Origin: an uncultured Bacteroidales bacterium
GTDB taxonomy: Bacteria > Bacteroidota > Bacteroidia > Bacteroidales > Paludibacteraceae
Length of the DNA stretch: 10,664 nt
Assembly: GCA_945787425.1 (NCBI GenBank)
Contig: CALZHO010000022.1
Span: 1 to 10,664, forward strand
Direction of reading: 5' to 3'
Each line of letters begins with the position of its first letter. Position 1 is the stretch's first letter. The notes below the pieces were generated by a model, which saw only the letters and a list, made by a program, of their open reading frames with translations, did not search any database and had not been told where the DNA came from. The position numbers and the translations under genes were made by a program. Positions 1 through 9,656 of the stretch are shown here, piece by piece.

Positions 1-2156
1 TGGTGCATGACATCAGGCACACAGGATGGCACCATACCGAGGTCCTCGCCGCAGCAGAGCATGTCGGTAGCAGCGATGAGCGTAGGGAGTTTCTTCATAG
101 CTGAATCGCGCCAGAAAGAAGTGTGGCGGTGGTAGAAATAGTCGTTGTGGATGTCCATGAGGAGTTGGCGTTGGTCGGCATACAACTCGCTGAAGTTATG
201 CGACTGATACATGGCGATACGTGGGTGGAGCATAGAAGGGTTCTTCTGGTCACGCACGAAGAGAATCTCACAATGGAGATAGAGCAAGCCATTGAGGACA
301 TTATCGATATTGCACTTGCCCTCCAGCGCAGCACGGTGCTCAGGGTCGAGGAAGTACTGCTGAACCTTGCGTTGGGTGTCAAGGTGCTCAGGGAAGTAGT
401 AGATATTACCGTCGTTGGTGAGGAGGAAGTTTTGCTTCACAAACTCGGTATCATAGCCAAAGACTTCGCCGAGGAAGTGAGCGCGGATATATGGTTTGGT
501 GAGGCGGTCCTCATCAAGCTTCACACCCATGTTCCACAGGTCTTGGAGCGAATAAGGCATAGCAGGAGAGAAGTGTCCGCAAAGTCCCCAAACATCGGAT
601 TTGCGCATCTGCCAGATACGGAAGAAGCCAAGGATATGGTCGATACGATAGGCATCGAAGTAGTCCGCCATCTTGGTGAAACGGAACTTCCACCAGTGGT
701 AGTCGTCTTGAGCCATAACATCCCAATTGTAGGTTGGGAAACCCCAGTTCTGACCACGTGCATCGAAGTCATCGGGTGGCGCACCCGCCGAAGCAGAGAG
801 GTTGAAGAGTTGTGGGTCGGTGGCAGCATCCACAGAGTCAGGAGAGATACCGATAGGTATATCGCCCTTGATAGCCACGCCTACAGAGTGTGCGTAGTCC
901 ACTGCCTCACGGAGTTGTTTGTCGGCGTGGAACTGGAGGTAGCAGTAGAAATCCTTAGGTTGTTTGTCGCGCTTAGAGAGGAACTCTGCGTAAGGCAAGA
1001 GCCAGCCCTCGTTGGCAGCGAGGAAAGTCTTATATTCGTCGGAAGCGAAGAGAGTAGCTTTGTCGGCCTTGTAGAGCGCTTTGAAGTACTTCATCTTCTC
1101 GTCATACACGCATTGGTAGTCTGCGATAGTCTTGGCATTGAACTCCTCTTGGGTCTTGCGGTACTTCTTGAGTTGAGCAGGAGTGAGGGTGCCCATCTTC
1201 TCGATATTGAGGTAGATTGGGTGGAGGGCAAAGACACTGACTGCGTTGTATGGATACGAGTCAAGGTTGTTATGACGGAGGGTGGTGTCGTTGATTGGGA
1301 GGGTCTGGATCATCTTTTGACCTGTAGCAACAGCCCAGTCAGCGAGGAGCTTGAGGTCTTGATACTCACCAATACCAAAGCCGTTCTCCGAGCGGAGAGA
1401 GAAGACTGGCACCGCTACGCCTGCGCCCTTCCAGTTGGCTTGTGTGTAGCGGAAAGGAGAGTCGGAGATGACATAATGCTTAGCACGTTGAACGTCCCAA
1501 ATCTTGCGATTCTCGCCCCACTCCATGTCCACGATGTCGCCCGATTGGAGGTCGTAGATGACATACTTGTACTCCACTACAGAGCCGAGTTTAGCGTGGA
1601 AAGTGGCGGTCCATTCTGCATTATATGCAGAGGTTAAAGGCGAAAGGTTAGAGGTTAAAGGCTGGTTACTCATAGGGAGTTTTTTGGTGCGATCCCATTC
1701 GCCGAGAGCGGCGATGTTACCCATGATAGCCACACCCTGATGACGTTCGAGGCGAGGTACGGAGACCTTGAGGGTGATGTTGCCAGTAGCTTTCTTAGCG
1801 GCTACAGGCGCACGGTGTGCGAAGAGCACTTGGCTGAAGACCTTAGAAGCGAAGAGAGAACGGTCCTTGTCTTGCCAGAGGTCGCGCAGCACGATATTGC
1901 CCGGTTGGCACTCGAGGAGGTGAGGCATAAACTCGCGGCGGAGGATGTTGCCTTGTTCGTCAAGGACTACATAGCAGTAAGAGATGTACTTATGGATGTC
2001 GCTGAGGGTGACTTGAGTTGACCACTCAGAGTTGCCGTGGCAGTCCATAGGGAGAGTCACAGGCGATGCGGTAGTGATGTCCGCATCCGCAGCGTAGAGA
2101 ACAGCGAGCTGTTGTCCCCATTGCGCTTGGTAGTTGATTGAAAAGGATAGATTCAT
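1..2156 (-). CDS. malQ: 4-alpha-glucanotransferase (GH77), DPE2-like with two CBM20 domains; 3' end outside window
   Basis: Cytoplasmic enzyme that transfers glucan segments between alpha-1,4-glucans and maltose/glucose in starch, maltodextrin or glycogen metabolism. No stop codon is present, so the C-terminus lies beyond the left edge; 718 full codons are visible and, from memory, Bacteroides relatives are near 900 residues. The first ~240 residues look like two starch-binding CBM20 modules; the second shows the typical GN..ALGEWD, VEYKYVIYD and EWGENR signatures. The GH77 domain follows: FPTYNWDVMA, then YRIDH with the expected nucleophile at D506, then GEDLG with the expected acid/base at E704. 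The ~200-residue gap between these residues, against ~48 in E. coli MalQ, and the tandem CBM20 are hallmarks of plant DPE2-type enzymes. The start is ATG at 2156 (MNLSFSINYQ). An in-frame repeat encodes residues 166-176. It lies 52 bases downstream of the flippase-like gene and is probably cotranscribed with it. Confidence 0.95.
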   Translation of the reverse strand, partial: MNLSFSINYQAQWGQQLAVLYAADADITTASPVTLPMDCHGNSEWSTQVTLSDIHKYISYCYVVLDEQGNILRREFMPHLLECQPGNIVLRDLWQDKDRSLFASKVFSQVLFAHRAPVAAKKATGNITLKVSVPRLERHQGVAIMGNIAALGEWDRTKKLPMSNQPLTSNLSPLTSAYNAEWTATFHAKLGSVVEYKYVIYDLQSGDIVDMEWGENRKIWDVQRAKHYVISDSPFRYTQANWKGAGVAVPVFSLRSENGFGIGEYQDLKLLADWAVATGQKMIQTLPINDTTLRHNNLDSYPYNAVSVFALHPIYLNIEKMGTLTPAQLKKYRKTQEEFNAKTIADYQCVYDEKMKYFKALYKADKATLFASDEYKTFLAANEGWLLPYAEFLSKRDKQPKDFYCYLQFHADKQLREAVDYAHSVGVAIKGDIPIGISPDSVDAATDPQLFNLSASAGAPPDDFDARGQNWGFPTYNWDVMAQDDYHWWKFRFTKMADYFDAYRIDHILGFFRIWQMRKSDVWGLCGHFSPAMPYSLQDLWNMGVKLDEDRLTKPYIRAHFLGEVFGYDTEFVKQNFLLTNDGNIYYFPEHLDTQRKVQQYFLDPEHRAALEGKCNIDNVLNGLLYLHCEILFVRDQKNPSMLHPRIAMYQSHNFSELYADQRQLLMDIHNDYFYHRHTSFWRDSAMKKLPTLIAATDMLCCGEDLGMVPSCVPDVMH
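1630..1662. repeat. 33-base heptamer-type interspersed repeat, in frame in malQ
   Basis: On the plus strand this is a run of degenerate heptamers (GAGGTTA, AAGGCGA, AAGGTTA, GAGGTTA, AAGGC). It matches 4404-4436 at 30 of 33 positions. In malQ it encodes PLTSNLSPLTS (residues 166-176) in the second CBM20 domain, between LGEWDRTKKLPMS and NAEWTATF, where these domains have a surface loop. Its length is exactly 11 codons. That it is a mobile or expanding element is inference. Confidence 0.8.
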
Positions 2157-3252: not shown

Positions 3253-4068
3253 TTGAGGACAAAACTCGTCATATTGTTTTTTCTTCTGTGCTTGGTAGGT
3301 GTAGTAAGCGGTCAGGTGAGCAATGTGTTGCCCACTTCGGCGAATATTGCCAATATGCAAACTGCGCGAACCGACAACTGGACTTGTTTTCATAACCCTG
3401 CTTCGCTGGTACAAGACGTAGGGTGGCAGTTGGCAGCGCAATATGAGAACAGGTATTTTTTGCCCTCGCTAAACACGGCTATGCTGCAAGTGGGATATAC
3501 GAATGAGTATGTGAATGTGGGTGTGGGATACGCGTTTTTCGGATATGCGAAGTATCAGGAGATGATGGCGGGTGTGGCATTGGCGCGATCGTTTGGTAGG
3601 TTTTCTATAGGATTGCAAGCCAACTACTTGACGCTGTATTGTGGCGATGAATTGGGGTACAGAGGTACGTTTATTCCGCAAATAGGTGTGGCAGTGAATG
3701 TGTTGCCAGAACTGACGATTGGTGTGCATGGTTTTAATCCGTTTATGCAGACGATAGCGATAGATGATCAGGTGCGGCGTAGATTGCCTGCCATCTATTC
3801 GTTGGGCTTGGATTATCGATGGAAAGAGGTTTTGCACTGGTCGGTGCAGGCAGACTATGATGTGAACAATACCTATCGTATCGCTACGGGTGTGGAATGG
3901 CAGGCGATTGAGCGATTGGTGGTGAAAGTGGGCGTGTATTATCAGCAGCAGTTGGTGGGTTGCATGGGTGTGGCTGTTACTTGGGATAGACTGCGATTGG
4001 ATGCGAACTTTGAGTTGCACCCATTGTTGGGCGTGACGTGTCAAGGAAGGATAGGAGTGAAGATATGA
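3253..4068 (+). CDS. PorV/PorQ-like outer-membrane beta-barrel protein
   Basis: A 271-residue predicted exported protein. The proposed TTG start at 3253 yields a classic signal peptide (MRTKLVILFFLLCLVGVVSG, cleavage before QVSN). A TTG at 3241 is in frame but lies inside the -7 box, so it cannot be used from this promoter; the first in-frame ATG (near 3355) would remove the signal peptide. The mature part begins with a segment containing CFHNPASL, like the conserved NPA motif of PorV/PorQ/FadL-type proteins. It continues as alternating amphipathic strands rich in Tyr, Gly and Val (VGYTNEYVNVGVGYAFFGY and similar). PorV/PorQ relatives serve type IX secretion or small-molecule passage, but nothing here fixes a substrate and no other T9SS gene is in view. 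Its stop overlaps the next ATG as ATGA, suggesting translational coupling. Confidence 0.7.
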   Translation: MRTKLVILFFLLCLVGVVSGQVSNVLPTSANIANMQTARTDNWTCFHNPASLVQDVGWQLAAQYENRYFLPSLNTAMLQVGYTNEYVNVGVGYAFFGYAKYQEMMAGVALARSFGRFSIGLQANYLTLYCGDELGYRGTFIPQIGVAVNVLPELTIGVHGFNPFMQTIAIDDQVRRRLPAIYSLGLDYRWKEVLHWSVQADYDVNNTYRIATGVEWQAIERLVVKVGVYYQQQLVGCMGVAVTWDRLRLDANFELHPLLGVTCQGRIGVKI

Positions 4069-5825
4069 GATGGAGAGTGGTTGGCATAGTATGGTTGGTA
4101 TGCATGAGCAGTTGGGCGCAGCAGTATCAGTTGGCAGATATATTGGAAGATATATATGGTCAGTTGGCGGAATATGGAATAGCGATGGATGATGTGGCAG
4201 AGCAACTGATGGAGATAGCAGAAAACCCTATTGATTTGAATCAGACTAATGCGGAGGAATTGGGTCAGTTGTGTTGGTTGACGGATGAGCAGATTGATGA
4301 TATTTTGCTATACCAATACCAGCATGCGTTTGTGAGTGTGTATGACCTGCAATTGATTCATAGTTTGAAAGACTACGATATCCGCAATTTGCTGCCGTTT
4401 GTAGAGGTGAAAGGTGATAGGTTAGAGGTTAAAGGCAAGGATATGTATTTTCGGGAGGTTTTTCACTATGCAAAGCATGAGATAACGCTGCGCGCAGATG
4501 CACGAAATATAGAGGATTATGAGAATGATCCGATGTATGGCAAACTAAGGTATCGATTTGATTATCAAAAGAAAGTGCAGGCAGGACTGACAATATGTCG
4601 CCCAACAGGCGGGGCATGGGAGCAGATGCAGTATGGTGCTTTTGTGCAGTTGCAAGACATCGGGTGTATCAAGAACCTGTCGGTTGGTAATTTTCAGGCG
4701 AATTTTGGTCAGGGATTGGTGATTGGTTCGCCCTTTAAGATGGGCAAAAATAGGTGGATGAGTTCGGGTATGAATGCACGAGAAGGCGTGCGTAAGTTTA
4801 CCTCTGTGAGCGATGATTATCAGGCGTTTCACGGCATAGGAACGACCTTGCGTTGGGGTTGGGCAGAGGTGTCGGCGATGTACTCGATAGACCAACAAAA
4901 GGATAGCGTATGGCATCACTTGGTGGGTGTGAATGCGACGGCCAAATGGAAAAAACTAAAAGTAGGCGTGACGGCGATAGAAAATATATATAGTGATAGT
5001 ACAGATGCACAGTCGGTGGTAGGTGTAAATGCGCGGTATAATTGGGGGAAAGTGGATTTGTGGGGTGAAATAGCTGCAACGCAGGGTAAGCGTTGGGGAT
5101 GGGGCGGAATAGTGGGAATGAATTTTACACCCATATCGGATGTGAATATATTGGCTCTATACCGCTATTATTCGCCTTATTTTGACAACCCATATGCTTA
5201 TGCTTTTTCAGAGAAAAGCCGATTGAATGATGAAAATGGATTTTACTTGGGTGTAGATGTACGGACATTTGCCAAATGGCGATTGGCGGCATATGTGGAT
5301 GCTTTTCGCGAGGGGTATGATGTGATGGCCCAGGCGGATTTTATACCGAACATGACCTATGACATGAACTGGCGCGTGCGGGCAAGGCGACAAGTGGACA
5401 AGGATACGTATGCGCTACGGTATCGGTTGGTTTATCGCCTACACGGCTGGGTTTTTCGCACGCAGATAAATGCGAATATAGTGAAAACAGATGGGTGGAA
5501 TTATGGAATATCGTTGCTGCAAGATGTGGAATACCATGTTCCTACCCTACCTATTGTATTGCAAATGCGCGCGCAGGCCTTCGATGCGCGCGAGTGGAAC
5601 AACCGCATTTATGCTTACGAAAATGACGTGCTGTATGCCTACTCTATTCCCAATGTCTATGGGTTGGGCGGACGGTTTTGGCTGAATGCACAGTATAAGA
5701 ATAATGATACGTTTTCGCTTTATCTGCGCGTGAGCGAGACCATCTATCAACAAGCATGGGCAGTAGAGCACAATAAAAATAGTACGCGCACGGACGTGCA
5801 CGCACTATTGAGGGTGAAACTGTAA
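4065..5825 (+). CDS. Exported helix-hairpin-helix protein with C-terminal beta-barrel
   Basis: 586 residues, starting at the ATG inside the ATGA overlap; a GTG at 4038 is in frame but would place hydrophilic residues before the signal peptide (MRWRVVGIVWLVCMSSWA, then QQYQ). AGGAAGG and AGGAG lie upstream. Residues ~54-113 resemble tandem ComEA/T2SK-type HhH motifs: NPIDLNQTNAEELGQL, an arginine-less YQYQH turn, then VYDLQLIHSL and NLLPFVEV. The glycines of the DNA-contacting hairpin (GIG) are absent, so DNA binding is doubtful. Residues ~130-586 are a long series of aromatic-rich strands ending in ALLRVKL, consistent with an outer-membrane barrel. An in-frame repeat supplies residues 114-124 at the HhH/barrel junction. 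Such HhH-barrel proteins occur in Bacteroidota genomes, but I know of no established function. It is probably in an operon with the preceding barrel protein. Confidence 0.8.
   Translation: MRWRVVGIVWLVCMSSWAQQYQLADILEDIYGQLAEYGIAMDDVAEQLMEIAENPIDLNQTNAEELGQLCWLTDEQIDDILLYQYQHAFVSVYDLQLIHSLKDYDIRNLLPFVEVKGDRLEVKGKDMYFREVFHYAKHEITLRADARNIEDYENDPMYGKLRYRFDYQKKVQAGLTICRPTGGAWEQMQYGAFVQLQDIGCIKNLSVGNFQANFGQGLVIGSPFKMGKNRWMSSGMNAREGVRKFTSVSDDYQAFHGIGTTLRWGWAEVSAMYSIDQQKDSVWHHLVGVNATAKWKKLKVGVTAIENIYSDSTDAQSVVGVNARYNWGKVDLWGEIAATQGKRWGWGGIVGMNFTPISDVNILALYRYYSPYFDNPYAYAFSEKSRLNDENGFYLGVDVRTFAKWRLAAYVDAFREGYDVMAQADFIPNMTYDMNWRVRARRQVDKDTYALRYRLVYRLHGWVFRTQINANIVKTDGWNYGISLLQDVEYHVPTLPIVLQMRAQAFDAREWNNRIYAYENDVLYAYSIPNVYGLGGRFWLNAQYKNNDTFSLYLRVSETIYQQAWAVEHNKNSTRTDVHALLRVKL
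4404..4436. repeat. 33-base heptamer-type repeat, in frame in the HhH gene
   Basis: Differs from 1630-1662 at three positions and is in the same plus-strand orientation, but here the plus strand is coding, so it reads EVKGDRLEVKG (residues 114-124). It sits immediately after the HhH segment and before the barrel, a likely linker. A perfect AAGGTTA array would create an in-frame TAA; the degenerate GGTGAT at that point avoids it. Confidence 0.8.
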
Positions 5826-5840: not shown

Positions 5841-8121
5841 TAGAGAATCCTGCATGGACATTGATGCCAGCTTGGGCGTAGTACCAGCAACAACGACTGC
5901 CGTCCATGAATCGACTGGCCTCCGCACCACCGTTATTGGCATACTTGGCATTGAAGATATTGTTAATCTGGCACAAAAGGCGGATTTCGGGGTATCGGCG
6001 AGCCTCTCCTAAATCCTCCCCTGAAGGGAAGGACTTCTTTATTGGCAATAGGTATTGGAGATTGAGGTTCGTGGTAGAATATGCACGGAGCATGGCGTTC
6101 TCGTCCTGGGTATTGTCAAGATACTGCTTGCTCACCACATTGGTTTGCACCGTAGCTGTGAAACCTGCTATATCAAAAGTAAAGAGAGAGGAAGCAGTAA
6201 TCGTAGGCGAGAAAGCAATGGTAGTAGTGCCTACCACAGAATCCTGCCCGAGCCAGTTGTCTTGGTCGTCGTAGAGGTTGATATACTGGTGGTAGTTGAG
6301 AATCTTATTACGCGATGCCACGAGATTAGCGTCCCAACGCAGCCAATTGGTGATTTTCACGCCCGCCGTGATTTCTGCTCCCATACGATACGAGTCCTTG
6401 ACATTCTTGGTCTTATACGCTCCCACATCGTTGTACTCGCCTGTGAGCACGAGTTGGTTGTCGTAGTCCATGAAATAGAGGTTGGCGCCAATAGCAAAGC
6501 GCGGATGCGAGTAGGTGTACCCCAGTTCGTAGTCATAAAGGCGTTCGGCATGAGGCAGGCCTGTGTATTCGCCCGTGGAGGCATCATAAAGGACATTCTC
6601 CTTGTAGTTGTTGCGACTTGGTTCTCGGTTGGCGATGGCGAAGGAAGCAGCGAGCAAGTGACCGCGATTTTGGTACGTCAAGCCCGCCTTGGGGTTGAAG
6701 AAATGGAAGTCCACTTTGAGCGGGAGGTTGGTCATGTCTTCATCGTTGAGACCATTGCGCTCATAGCGCACATAGCGGTATTGTAGGTCGGCATAGAGCG
6801 AGAGTTGCTCTTGTGCGCGATTGATAATACGCCAGTTGGCTTTGGCATAGATATTGGCGTCGGTCTTGCGGGCGTTGTTGCGGTAGTATTCGTAGTTGAT
6901 GGGGATGATGAGCGAGTCCTCAAGGTAGTGGAGCGTGCCAAAGTGGTCACCCATATAGTAATTGGCTGCGCCACCAAACTGCACATCTACTGGCTCAGAA
7001 ATATACTTAGCCGCCACTACGCCGCCAAAGAAATGGTTGTCGAGCTGCTTGCGGTACATGCCGTAAGCTTCGTGCGAATAAGGGAGACCCCAATAGGATA
7101 GTTTTTTGCGTTTGTATTGCTCGCAGTAGCCCGCGCCATGAGTGTAGTGGGCAGTAGCGGAGAGTGACCATTGGGGCGTGAAGCGATGATGGATAGATAA
7201 TTGAGCATGCTGCTGGGCATAGTTGTCGGTTTGGTTGGGGTAGTAGGCAGTAGAGTCGGAGCCGTCTGCGGCAGTTGTGGTGTATTCGCCTGCAGAGTTG
7301 TAGCGACGGTCGGAGCCGTTGATGCCATAGGCAGTGTTATAATCCACGCCATCCCAACCCATGCCTGTCTTCTCGCTTCCGCCAAAGAAGCGACCAACGA
7401 CTTCTGTCTTAGCGCCATACCAACCGAGGTCGCCGTAGTAGGAGTAGAGGTCGGAGGCAGTGCGGTAGAGGAAGCCATCGGAGTTGACCTTGGAGAATCG
7501 AGCATTAGCACGCCAACGGTTCGGCAGTACGATATGGGCATCGACCATCTCGCGAAAGGTGTTGTACATACCGCCGTTGAAGGAGATGGTAGCGGAGCTA
7601 CGGTCGTGTGCGCTTTGCGCAGATTGAGCGCCTTCGGCGAGTTGAGTCGGCTTTGCCGAGGTGGACATGTTGATGCTGGCACCGAAGGAGGCGCTACCGT
7701 TGGTGGATGTGCCTACACCGCGTTGGACATTGAGCGAGGTTATACTGCTGGCCATGTCGGTCATATTGACCCAAAAGACAGTTTGGCTCTCGCTGTCGTT
7801 GAGTGGCACATCATTGAGGGTCATGTTGATACGGGTGTGATCGGTTCCACGGATACGGAAATAGGTGTAGCCAATACCCAATCCGTCATCGCTGGTGGCA
7901 ACGAGCGCAGGCGTGGAAGAAAGCAAGAAGGGGAGGTTTTGCCCTGTGTTGCTCTGGTTGAGTTGCTCACGAGTGAGAGCAGTGTGATTGTTAGTGACTT
8001 GCGCTACAGGCGCGTTAACTACTACTTCGTCCAATTCGCGAACGAAAGTGAGTGTGTCGGTGTTGGCAAATGCAACACTACAAGCAGCTACGTAAGCCGC
8101 CAAAAAGATAGATTTTTTCAT
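5830..8121 (-). CDS. TonB-dependent outer-membrane receptor, predicted thiamine importer
   Basis: A 763-residue receptor for energy-dependent uptake across the outer membrane. Signal peptide MKKSIFLAAYVAACSVAFA is followed by a TonB-box-like LDEVVVNA (30-37). A plug domain runs to about residue 155 and contains FRIRGTDHTRINMTLNDVP and VQRGVGTSTNGSASFGASINM. The rest is a 22-strand-type barrel ending in aromatic GFSITF. It has no N-terminal carboxypeptidase-like domain and no SusD partner, so it is not a SusC-type glycan receptor. The substrate assignment rests on the TPP riboswitch directly upstream; TPP-controlled receptors for thiamine are known in Bacteroides. No pnuT or thi gene is adjacent. 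Two in-frame repeats encode residues ~156-172 and 697-707. The ATG at 8121 is part of the riboswitch P1 stem. I found no convincing promoter directly upstream, so readthrough from the gtrA-like gene is possible. Confidence 0.92.
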   Translation of the reverse strand: MKKSIFLAAYVAACSVAFANTDTLTFVRELDEVVVNAPVAQVTNNHTALTREQLNQSNTGQNLPFLLSSTPALVATSDDGLGIGYTYFRIRGTDHTRINMTLNDVPLNDSESQTVFWVNMTDMASSITSLNVQRGVGTSTNGSASFGASINMSTSAKPTQLAEGAQSAQSAHDRSSATISFNGGMYNTFREMVDAHIVLPNRWRANARFSKVNSDGFLYRTASDLYSYYGDLGWYGAKTEVVGRFFGGSEKTGMGWDGVDYNTAYGINGSDRRYNSAGEYTTTAADGSDSTAYYPNQTDNYAQQHAQLSIHHRFTPQWSLSATAHYTHGAGYCEQYKRKKLSYWGLPYSHEAYGMYRKQLDNHFFGGVVAAKYISEPVDVQFGGAANYYMGDHFGTLHYLEDSLIIPINYEYYRNNARKTDANIYAKANWRIINRAQEQLSLYADLQYRYVRYERNGLNDEDMTNLPLKVDFHFFNPKAGLTYQNRGHLLAASFAIANREPSRNNYKENVLYDASTGEYTGLPHAERLYDYELGYTYSHPRFAIGANLYFMDYDNQLVLTGEYNDVGAYKTKNVKDSYRMGAEITAGVKITNWLRWDANLVASRNKILNYHQYINLYDDQDNWLGQDSVVGTTTIAFSPTITASSLFTFDIAGFTATVQTNVVSKQYLDNTQDENAMLRAYSTTNLNLQYLLPIKKSFPSGEDLGEARRYPEIRLLCQINNIFNAKYANNGGAEASRFMDGSRCCWYYAQAGINVHAGFSITF
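6001..6033. repeat. 33-base near-palindromic repeat, in frame in the TonB receptor
   Basis: TCCTCCCCT (6014-6022) and AGGGAAGGA (6025-6033) are inverted, with one G-U-type mismatch across a two-base centre; an AGCCTCTCCTAAA flank follows on the left. In the receptor it encodes SFPSGEDLGEA (697-707), between barrel strand LQYLLPIKK and RRYPEIRLL, where a loop is expected. I recall similar CCTCCCCT..AGGGGAGG elements scattered in Bacteroidota genomes; that link is from memory. Confidence 0.65.
7610..7659. repeat. Triple mini-hairpin repeat, in frame in the TonB receptor
   Basis: Three perfect inverted repeats stand in a row: GCGC-TTT-GCGC (7610-7620), CGCC-TTC-GGCG (7629-7639) and TCGGC-TTT-GCCGA (7647-7659). 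Their centres are 19 bases apart and they are joined by AGATTGAG and AGTTGAG linkers. On the coding strand they read roughly as AKPTQLAEGAQSAQSAH (156-172), a low-complexity stretch between the end of the plug domain (ASINMSTS) and the first barrel strand (SSATISFNGG). Confidence 0.7.
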
Positions 8122-8197
8122 TTGTTCCCTCTACAGAATTACCTGTGCAGGTTCTATGGGTATGATCTCAGCCTAAAGAAGTGAGGCACCCCAAATG
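8119..8197 (-). promoter_or_regulatory. TPP riboswitch (THI element) overlapping the receptor start codon
   Basis: Read on the minus strand, the conserved TPP-aptamer blocks occur in order: GGGGTGCC (8192-8185), GGCTGAGATCATACCC, GAACCTG, CAGGTAAT and AGGGAA. P2 forms from GCCT/AGGC, and P5 from CCTG/CAGG. CATTTG (8197-8192) pairs perfectly with CAAATG (8124-8119), giving a six-base-pair P1. The last three bases of this stem are the ATG of the receptor gene. TPP binding should stabilise P1 and hide the start codon, repressing translation. Aptamer identity is nearly certain; the mechanism is inferred. Confidence 0.95.
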
Positions 8198-8215
8198 TTA
8201 ATAATTATGTTTACT

Positions 8216-8728
8216 TTACTTCTTAAATGAGAAGTATTTTTGTCCAAAAAAACTTATTGCAACTGTGATAATAGTCACGATCATCTTGGATGGCGTAGGA
8301 TAAATACCACAAACTTCTACAAAAAGTTTTAATCCAAAATAATTCACCAACAGATTGATTATTACAATCAATATATATCGCCAGAGTTGTTTATATCCAC
8401 GGAGTGAAGATTGGGTGAAAGTCACATATTTATTCAGCCAAAAACCAGTCAGCAGTGTGATTGGAAATACAATCAGCAGCGACATGATGTGGGGTGTGAG
8501 GCAGATTTGAGAACTGAAAGGTGAAAAGTTAAAACTAAAAGGTAAGGAGATATACACCAATTCATGCCCTACTACAAAATTGTAAATGAAAAAATACAAT
8601 ACCCAGTCCAGCACCATGTTTCCACCGCCGCAGGCAGCATAGCGAAATAGCTGATGAGGTATGTAATTACGAAATGGTCGATAGAAAAAATCGACTATTT
8701 TGGTAATTATTTGGGCTAATGTTTGCAT
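8216..8728 (-). CDS. GtrA-like integral membrane protein
   Basis: 170 residues matching the GtrA family, small four-helix membrane proteins linked to movement or modification of polyprenyl-linked sugars for surface polysaccharides. Hydrophobic segments lie near residues 27-52, 78-97, 115-138 and 146-164. Family features include LFRYAACGGGNMVLDW in the first helix and FPITLLTGFWLNKYVTF after the second. The loop between helices one and two carries an in-frame repeat (PFSFNFSPFSS, 63-73). The start is ATG at 8728, about 45 bases after the promoter at 8780-8811. The TPP-controlled receptor lies 94 bases downstream on the same strand. A 6-bp inverted repeat (ACTTCT/AGAAGT, 8218-8235) overlaps the last codons but lacks a T-tract. 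Specific substrate unknown; no glycosyltransferase partner is in the window. Confidence 0.85.
   Translation of the reverse strand: MQTLAQIITKIVDFFYRPFRNYIPHQLFRYAACGGGNMVLDWVLYFFIYNFVVGHELVYISLPFSFNFSPFSSQICLTPHIMSLLIVFPITLLTGFWLNKYVTFTQSSLRGYKQLWRYILIVIINLLVNYFGLKLFVEVCGIYPTPSKMIVTIITVAISFFGQKYFSFKK
8511..8543. repeat. Diverged 33-base heptamer-type repeat, in frame in the gtrA-like gene
   Basis: Same orientation as the malQ copy and 23 of 33 positions identical to it. The coding phase is the same, so PFSFNFSPFSS (residues 63-73) parallels PLTSNLSPLTS in MalQ. It falls in the loop between the first two predicted membrane helices. Confidence 0.65.
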
Positions 8729-8868: not shown

Positions 8869-9633
8869 ATGCAACAAGTAAGAGCCAAGAAATTTTTGGG
8901 TCAGCATTTCTTGAAGGACCTGAGTGTCGCCCAACGAATTGCTGAAACCATTACAGCAGGCCGTGTCTTAGAGATTGGTCCTGGCATGGGTGTGCTGACG
9001 CAGTATCTCCTGAAGAATCCTAAATTGCAGACTACCGCTATCGAAATCGATAGGGAGAGTGTGGCGTACCTCAAAGAATGGTACCCTGAGTTGCATTTGA
9101 TAGAGGGCGATTTCTTGAAATTGGACCTGAATGTGATTTACCCTGATGGAGAATTCTGTGTAATCGGCAATTATCCGTATAATATCAGTAGTCAAATTTT
9201 CTTCAAAGTGCTTGTATATAAGGATCGTATCCCTATTTGCTCAGGTATGATTCAGAAGGAAGTAGCCGAGCGTATCGCCAGTAAGCCAGGTAAAAAAGCA
9301 TATGGTATTCTCAGCGTACTGCTGCAAGCGTACTACGATATAGAATATCTTTTCACCGTGGATGAGCATGTGTTTAACCCTCCGCCGAAAGTAAAGTCGG
9401 CGGTTATTCGCATGACTCGCAACAACCGCCAAGGATTGGGCTGCGACGAGGCGCTGTTTAAAAACGTAGTTAAGACAGCATTTAACCAACGCCGAAAGCA
9501 GATGCGCAATTCGTTGATGGGAATAGTCGGCAAAGATAATCCTATCCTCAACGAACCCATCTTCACGAAGCGCCCCGAACAACTGAGTGTAGAGGAATTT
9601 ATCGCACTCACAAAAAAAATTGAAAGTTTATAG
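8869..9633 (+). CDS. ksgA: 16S rRNA (adenine(1518)-N(6)/adenine(1519)-N(6))-dimethyltransferase
   Basis: Dimethylates two adjacent adenines in the 3'-terminal helix 45 of 16S rRNA using S-adenosylmethionine, a late step of small-subunit assembly. 254 residues, close to the family norm. Visible motifs: [11 protein letters not shown] (5-15), SAM-binding [10 protein letters not shown] (35-44), acidic EID (59-61), GDF (80-82), and the catalytic-site motif NYPY (101-104; NLPY in many species). [12 protein letters not shown] and [12 protein letters not shown] follow in the C-terminal half. I chose ATG at 8869 because conserved residues begin at once ([14 protein letters not shown]); the frame is open to 8797 but encodes nothing recognisable. 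The stop codon lies inside a heptamer-type repeat. corA follows after 23 bases. Confidence 0.97.
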
Positions 9634-9649
9634 TTTAAAGTTTAAAGGC
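9622..9649. repeat. Heptamer-type repeat across the ksgA stop codon
   Basis: A 28-base run (GAAAGTTTATAG followed by TTTAAAG-type heptamers and ending TTTAAAGGC) supplies the last codons of ksgA (ESL) and its TAG. It fills most of the gap to corA. The terminal TTAAAGGCAAG matches the end of the 4404-4436 copy and its flank. It is more AT-rich than the other copies. Confidence 0.6.
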
Positions 9650-9656
9650 AAGAATT

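What the first reader, a model, noticed from the sequence alone, without database searches (positions are those of the whole stretch)
1630..1662. 33-base heptamer repeat inserted in frame into the CBM20 loop of MalQ
The stretch is 30/33 identical to one in an unrelated gene (4404-4436), far beyond chance for two coding regions on opposite strands. It adds exactly 11 codons (PLTSNLSPLTS) in a CBM20 loop. This suggests a frame-neutral interspersed element that colonises genes at sites tolerant of extra residues.
Basis: partly seen in the sequence, partly recalled or inferred. Interest (0 to 1): 0.75.

Follow-up and report, generated by a model that had tools for sequence, protein, structure and literature searches.

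The report
Swappable repeat arrays inside conserved genes
In these uncultured gut Bacteroidales, short tandem repeats are scattered through the genome and sit in frame in conserved enzymes, and related species often carry a different repeat word at the same place, so protein segments seem to be rewritten by interchangeable DNA repeats.

Summary
In detail: the MalQ stretch matches 4404-4436 at 30/33; 200 codon shuffles gave at most 24. It belongs to a genome-wide family of degenerate 7-nt tandem arrays (166 pattern hits, 21 for the reversed control), beside families with units of 8 to 11 nt. Words are shared between places far above a random-word null. The interpretation needs changing. In 13 of 13 near relatives (MalQ 90-92% identical) the same CBM20 loop already holds repeat units, but of other words: CCAATNN in 11, CAACTGT in 1, an 8-nt TCGCCTCA in 1; 6 distant MalQ aligned lack them. 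So this is an occupied, rewritten slot, not a clean 11-codon insertion. GH149 phosphorylase, Asd, MnmA and RimO behave alike, with one 7-nt to 10-nt swap. Best reading: words spread by copying between arrays, change length by slippage, and survive in genes where in frame and stop-free. The agent is unknown; Y1 transposase has no match in array-rich, 98% complete G014. The arrays are of the known heptanucleotide-repeat kind (STRR/LSSR); in-frame word switching at fixed slots looks like a new variant.

The parts
1629..1661 (-). Heptad array (word CCTTTAA / AGGTTAA) coding PLTSNLSPLTS in the CBM20 region of MalQ; the third unit is the stop-avoiding variant TTTCGCC
3..2156 (-). MalQ, 4-alpha-glucanotransferase (GH77) with CBM20, cut by the window end
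4404..4436 (+). Second copy of the heptad array, in frame (EVKGDRLEVKGK), 30/33 to the first; same word at the orthologous slot in L099, L092 and L103, 8-nt AGTTCAGG in L096, no array in the other 9 of 13
4065..5825 (+). Gene holding the second copy; no Pfam or NCBIfam match
8508..8549 (-). Degenerate heptad array in frame in a GtrA-family membrane protein; 21 nt longer than in L091, L093, L094, L102 and L103; L092 carries CTTTACA units and L099 CCTTTCG/CCTCTAA units at the same place
9621..9655 (+). Heptad array (AAAGTTT) over the stop codon of rsmA and the gap before corA; 21 nt longer with partly different units in L099; AATTCAAA-type sequence in L091, L094, L102, L103
2165..2211 (.). 10-nt array (GTTGTTTAGT) between the LPG_synthase_TM gene and malQ; by eye, the same gap holds 9-nt or 7-nt repeats in L091, L093, L095 and L098

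Best explanation
The stretch is one copy of a dispersed degenerate heptanucleotide array. Shown here: (1) this genome holds families of short tandem words (7 nt most, then 11, 10, 8 and 9), and words are shared by unrelated places; (2) arrays lie in frame inside conserved proteins; (3) at a given orthologous slot, related species carry different words and in one gene even a different unit length; (4) of 10 own-sister length differences at same-word arrays, 5 are multiples of the unit. Inferred: new words reach a slot by copying from another array in the same genome (template switching or gap repair primed by a few matching bases), or arrive inside an allele by recombination with a related species. 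Arrays then grow and shrink by slippage. Selection removes copies that break the frame or carry a stop, so survivors collect where extra residues are tolerated and, in MalQ, carry a variant unit exactly where the pure word would give a stop. The arrays are most likely near-neutral passengers that now and then become part of the protein (loop, what look like signal-peptide cores) or of a leader upstream of a start codon.
For: Word sharing between places: own genome, 52 seven-nt arrays, 46 same-word pairs against a null mean of 1.45 (maximum 6 in 60 draws); 8, 9, 10 and 11 nt gave 6, 2, 4 and 3 pairs against 0 in all draws; sister alike at 7 nt (33 against 1.1, maximum 5). Word switching at slots: MalQ, four word classes in 14; GH149 in 6 genomes: CCTTTAA 2, CCATACA 1, 10-nt 2, TCGCCTAA/CCCCAATAG mix 1; Asd, 14 genomes: CAACTGT 1, AATTCAA 2, a degenerate GGAAAAGTG-type insert 3, empty 8; MnmA, 13 placed: CCAATNN 2, CAACTGN 3, GAATTAN-type 2, none clear 6; RimO, 14 genomes: six kinds of content. 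Indels: 4 of 5 gaps of 3 nt or more between the window and sister L099 lie in arrays. Unit steps at same-word own-sister slots: +21, -28 and -35 (7 nt), -11 (11 nt), -9 (9 nt). Copying: MalQ and GH149 arrays match 37/38 including non-repeat edges; the tail GGCTGG follows five of 44 own arrays and GGCAAG five. Stop avoidance: with the sequences.
Against: No single donor-to-slot copying event is pinned down, and the 37/38 match was not tested against a simulation of same-word arrays. The null draws words from the whole sequence, so a composition bias of array words is not excluded. Five of the 10 own-sister length differences at same-word arrays are not unit multiples: -6, +19, -15, -1, -3. Some slot differences come with allele exchange between species: own GH149 is 95% identical to G073 and 90% to the sister, and the MalQ tree groups own with L093, L094, L101, L102 and L103 (100/100) rather than with sister L099. 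Most own-sister slots keep the same word (own to sister 17 of 24, 5 empty, 2 other; sister to own 21 of 24, 2 empty, 1 other), so switching is not the rule at short distance. The 4404 slot and the three signal-peptide-like slots show mainly presence or absence of one word. Genes for the slot comparison were chosen because own carried an array there.
Confidence: 0.5

Rival explanations
1. Independent local slippage: each array grew at its own place from a chance seed, with no copying between places (slippage is the origin that MacGregor 2015 reports was proposed for long heptanucleotide repeats).
For: Unit-step length changes at half of the differing same-word slots. Some slots without a long array already resemble the word, for example CCTTTCGCGTCTGAG in gtrA of L093, L094 and L102.
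Against: Words are shared between unrelated places far above the null. Non-repeat tails GGCTGG and GGCAAG recur. Slots change word class rather than only length.
Confidence: 0.15
2. A dedicated mobile element or enzyme inserts the arrays, for example a Y1 (IS200/IS605 or RAYT) transposase, or an RNA-templated polymerase that adds repeats at breaks.
For: Dispersal; repeated occupation of the same slot; small hairpins next to or inside some arrays.
Against: Y1_Tnp PF01797 has no match in own (62% complete), G006 (84%), G014 (98%), G015 (78%) or G034 (97%), all rich in the word; G025, also rich, has one match below the cut-off and G003 one above it. Target-site duplications were not tested systematically, and no other enzyme was tested.
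Confidence: 0.2
3. The arrays are maintained for a function, such as binding sites for a regulator near start codons.
For: An ATG lies within 18 nt after the array in 23 of 44 (own) and 18 of 37 (sister) AGGTTAA arrays, against a background of 0.29. Beggiatoaceae heptamers lie upstream of start codons (PMC4679880, abstract).
Against: On the other strand and side the count is 12 of 44 and 6 of 37; only 13 and 12 of the ATGs open a frame of 60 codons or more; the few near-relative arrays show 0 of 3. Words differ between close species at the same place, and 20 of 52 seven-nt arrays lie inside open frames.
Confidence: 0.1
4. The differences at slots come only from homologous recombination between species that each fixed one word, with no switching within a genome.
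For: GH149 and MalQ show mosaic kinship.
Against: It moves words between species but does not explain how different words came to occupy one slot in the first place.
Confidence: 0.05

Closest known systems
Heptanucleotide long simple sequence repeats and TAACTGA repeats (MacGregor 2015, PMC4679880: abstract and sections 3, 10 and 15 read; Mrazek 2007 known only through it)
   Same: 7-nt tandem units, many dispersed sets, patchy between species, other heptamers mixed in; some sets inside open frames; unit-step indels in Cyanothece; five Bacteroidetes including Paludibacter propionicigenes were reported
   Different: There mostly intergenic just before start codons. Here 20 of 52 seven-nt arrays lie inside open frames, several in conserved enzymes, and the word changes at fixed slots
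Cyanobacterial STRR and the Nostoc tRNA-Leu intron P6b heptanucleotide repeats (PMC3488679 and PMC2670836: passages seen; Mazel 1990 and Costa 2002 only as cited there)
   Same: Degenerate 7-nt repeats at one fixed place with two motif classes between genotypes: the nearest precedent I found for word switching
   Different: A structural RNA hairpin, not a protein-coding slot; two classes of one unit length
GGGNATC heptamers of Xanthomonas and Nostoc (PMC4692102: abstract and passages seen)
   Same: Dispersed heptamers, variable copy number
   Different: G-rich quadruplex formers, under-represented in coding regions
Rickettsia palindromic elements (recalled; one search listed no paper on them)
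   Same: Repeats inserted in frame in unrelated genes (recalled)
   Different: Those are palindromic (recalled); the word here is not palindromic and the unit is 7 nt

Membership tests
Heptanucleotide tandem repeats (STRR / LSSR) | Tandem units of 7 nt | tested here: met
Heptanucleotide tandem repeats (STRR / LSSR) | Many dispersed sets in one genome | tested here: met
Heptanucleotide tandem repeats (STRR / LSSR) | Length changes in unit steps | tested here: inconclusive
   of 10 own-sister length differences at same-word arrays, 5 are unit multiples and 5 are not
Heptanucleotide tandem repeats (STRR / LSSR) | Mainly intergenic (typical, not defining) | tested here: not met
   of 52 seven-nt arrays 20 inside open frames, 12 at 3' ends, 4 at 5' ends, 16 intergenic (mechanical open frames of 90 aa or more)
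REP/RAYT or IS200/IS605 elements | Y1 transposase in the genome | tested here: not met
   no match in own, G006, G014, G015 or G034; one below the cut-off in G025
REP/RAYT or IS200/IS605 elements | Hairpin unit | tested here: inconclusive
   hairpins adjoin or split some arrays, but the array word itself is not palindromic
Rickettsia palindromic elements | Palindromic sequence (recalled) | tested here: not met
   the word AGGTTAA is not self-complementary (sequence)
Phase-variable contingency repeats | Reversible on/off frame switching in a population | not testable with these tools
   needs population reads

The most novel reading that the evidence does not exclude
These bacteria run an active repeat-exchange process, possibly with its own template-driven enzyme, that keeps rewriting fixed slots in genes with words drawn from a species-specific vocabulary, so that protein loops and signal peptides are built from genome-wide repeat words.
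Probability: 0.12. Interest if true: 0.9.

Novelty: new variant of a known kind. Interest (0 to 1): 0.6.

Why it matters
It shows repeats whose unit is not a multiple of three living in frame in conserved enzymes (MalQ, Asd, RimO, MnmA) and being replaced by other repeats at the same place between related species. It offers a natural set, several slots in many species, for testing how short words spread in bacterial genomes, and it points to a route by which proteins acquire new segments.

Tried and rejected
Y1 transposase as mobiliser: unlikely. Closest donor search for the MalQ array: GH149 on C4 at 36/39, suggestive only; I did not simulate same-word arrays. Start-codon targeting: a moderate excess with a weak control. 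Ten paper searches for a prior report (open-licence PMC only) showed none on Bacteroidales slots; MacGregor 2015 is the nearest. No structure was predicted, so 'loop' rests on alignments. Signal-peptide-like slots (L035, L037, L077) show presence or absence of one word rather than clear switching. The MalQ array itself lies below the threshold of my de novo scan, so those counts miss short degenerate arrays. Slot tallies count only arrays with both flanks found: 24 of 107 own and 24 of 117 sister arrays, from 575 kb and 649 kb. The near relatives are the 13 with MalQ at about 90% or more among the 80 loci kept of 111; of the 67 more distant loci only 6 were aligned at the slot. My note put the GGCAAG tails at about 13; the recount gives 5 of 44. 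A first full-window Rfam search found nothing at the gathering score.

Full report
What was checked. The 33-base stretch at 1630-1662 matches 4404-4436 at 30 of 33 bases; the best match between codon-shuffled versions of the two genes was 20 to 24 in 200 trials. It codes PLTSNLSPLTS, MalQ residues 166-176, inside the CBM20 match. The repeat finder gives two further, weaker copies in the window at 8515-8549 and 9621-9655. Tandem Repeats Finder lists the array as period 7, 4.4 copies.

The genome. The window is contig C22 of a fragmented assembly (1.34 Mb, 268 contigs, 62% complete). The pattern AGGTTAGAGGTTAAAGG with up to 3 mismatches occurs 166 times, its reversed control 21 times. In 575 kb (61 contigs, the window included) a scan for self-similarity at a fixed distance finds period 7 most (44 stretches), then 11 (25), 10 (13), 8 and 9 (12 each), against 0 at 5, 6 at 6, 8 at 12 and 1 at 13; higher values at 14, 18, 20, 21 and 22 can be read as multiples of the short periods. 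There are several words at each period. Words are shared between places: 46 same-word pairs among 52 seven-nt arrays against a null mean of 1.45, maximum 6 in 60 draws. The null draws words from the sequence at large, so a composition effect is not fully excluded. The phenomenon is wider than this species: 60 of 67 loci with more distant MalQ hold at least one array of unit 7 to 11, and these 1.2 Mb show 18 seven-nt stretches per 100 kb (own 7.7), often with other words. The exact word of the window is patchy in the genus but in excess in all 13 near relatives.

Where arrays lie. With mechanical open frames of 90 aa or more, the 52 seven-nt arrays are 20 inside, 12 at 3' ends, 4 at 5' ends and 16 intergenic; 22 of 24 eleven-nt arrays are intergenic. 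Hosts include aspartate-semialdehyde dehydrogenase, RimO, MnmA, PriA, GldG, a PPIC-type peptidyl-prolyl isomerase and a GH149-type glucan phosphorylase (the GH149 piece is cut by its contig end and scores 933 bits, below that model's cut-off of 1150). Four arrays fall in N-terminal stretches that read like signal-peptide cores, for example LVIGYWLLAIG and CSLLLVLCSL (judged by eye).

The slot, not the word, is conserved. In 13 of 13 near relatives the MalQ loop holds repeat units at the same place: CCAATNN units in 11, CAACTGT in L096, and the 8-nt TCGCCTCA in L093. Of the 11, L094, L101 and L102 end in TAGCGAAGCGT, and L094 and L101 have only about two units plus a GGCGGAACGCCG segment. The 6 more distant MalQ sequences aligned have none. 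On a MalQ tree made from 1290 nt after the slot, four word classes need 3 changes, the fewest possible; only 3 of 11 inner branches are strongly supported, and these force at least 2 for the CCAATNN label. In the GH149 gene (found in 5 of 13 relatives) own and L241 carry CCTTTAA, L243 CCATACA, L244 and L245 a 10-nt ACAACTCTAC word, and L242 a mix of TCGCCTAA and CCCCAATAG (open frames). In Asd, 8 of 14 genomes have a short empty segment, own carries CAACTGT units, L292 and L295 carry AATTCAA units, and three carry a degenerate GGAAAAGTG-type insert. phmmer against a solved Asd (8juo) also leaves out residues 279-300 of own. In MnmA, own and L259 carry CCAATNN, L260, L261 and L264 CAACTGN, L262 and L267 GAATTAN-type units, 6 nothing clear, and L271 could not be placed. 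In RimO the slot holds AGGTGAA units (own, L282), AGGTTAA split by a hairpin (L272, L274, L279), GGCGATTA (L275), AGTTCAGG (L283), hairpins plus AGTTTAG-type units (6 genomes) and a duplicated NPSLKGREF segment (L280). These genes were picked because own had an array in them. The second window copy (4404-4436) is quieter: same word in L099, L092 and L103, 8-nt in L096, none in 9.

Change between sisters. Window against L099: 4 of the 5 gaps of 3 nt or more fall in arrays. For arrays with both flanks found, own to sister gives 17 same word, 5 no array, 2 other array (of 24); sister to own gives 21, 2 and 1 (of 24). Of the 17 own arrays with the same word, 7 have the same length, 5 differ by unit multiples (+21, -28, -35 at 7 nt; -11 at 11 nt; -9 at 9 nt) and 5 by other lengths (-6, +19, -15, -1, -3).

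Frame. The pure word has a stop every seven codons in all frames: PLTFNL* for CCTTTAA and PIANSQ* for CCAATAG. In MalQ the unit in the stop phase is a variant in both cases looked at: TTTCGCC (LSP) in own, CCAATTG or CCAATCG in CCAATAG-bearing relatives.

Copying. The array closest to MalQ's in the sequence held is in GH149: 37 of 38 bases including non-repeat edges. Tails recur after arrays at unrelated places: GGCTGG in five and GGCAAG in five of 44 own arrays. This favours copying over independent growth, without proof of direction. Y1 transposases have no match in G014, which is 98% complete and rich in the word, nor in own, G006, G015 and G034; G025 has one match below the cut-off. REP/RAYT mobilisation is therefore unlikely.

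Literature. Heptanucleotide repeats are a known kind: MacGregor 2015 (PMC4679880; [quoted passage not shown] The nearest precedent I found for switching at one place is the Nostoc tRNA-Leu intron P6b, with two classes of heptanucleotide repeat (PMC3488679, passages). I found no report of in-frame word switching at fixed slots of conserved proteins in the ten searches listed in Tried and rejected; the library lacks most subscription papers.

Judgement. Known kind of repeat, unusual behaviour. The best-supported mechanism is dispersal and replacement by copying between arrays, with slippage and purifying selection, at about even odds; the enzyme, if any, is unknown.

Noticed in passing
window 8106-8203 (-): TPP riboswitch upstream of the TonB-dependent receptor gene: 51.1 bits, E 9.9e-10, just below the Rfam gathering score of 54.3 (no match at the gathering score); suggests a thiamine-related receptor.
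   Followed up: partly
L078 near 4383-4470, L041 near 1230-1310, L050 (- strand) near 266-340; variants at L078 5637 and L015 1493: Compound repeat: heptad array followed by GGCTGG...ATGCGGCAAAGCCGC, a small hairpin element, at several unrelated places.
   Followed up: partly
L280 (RimO slot): A duplicated segment reading KPTPNPSLKGREFG sits in the RimO slot, so other repeat kinds use the same slot.
   Followed up: no
G060 (same order, other family): 185 hits of the window's heptad pattern against 20 control hits, although most other families of the order show few.
   Followed up: no
L034 15486-15502 (L022): The same GH149 gene carries a second, earlier array (PPLASNLSPLTYLTSS) besides the one compared.
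   Followed up: no
own genome, 24 eleven-nt arrays: Eleven-nt arrays are nearly all intergenic (22 of 24) whereas seven-nt arrays are often genic.
   Followed up: no
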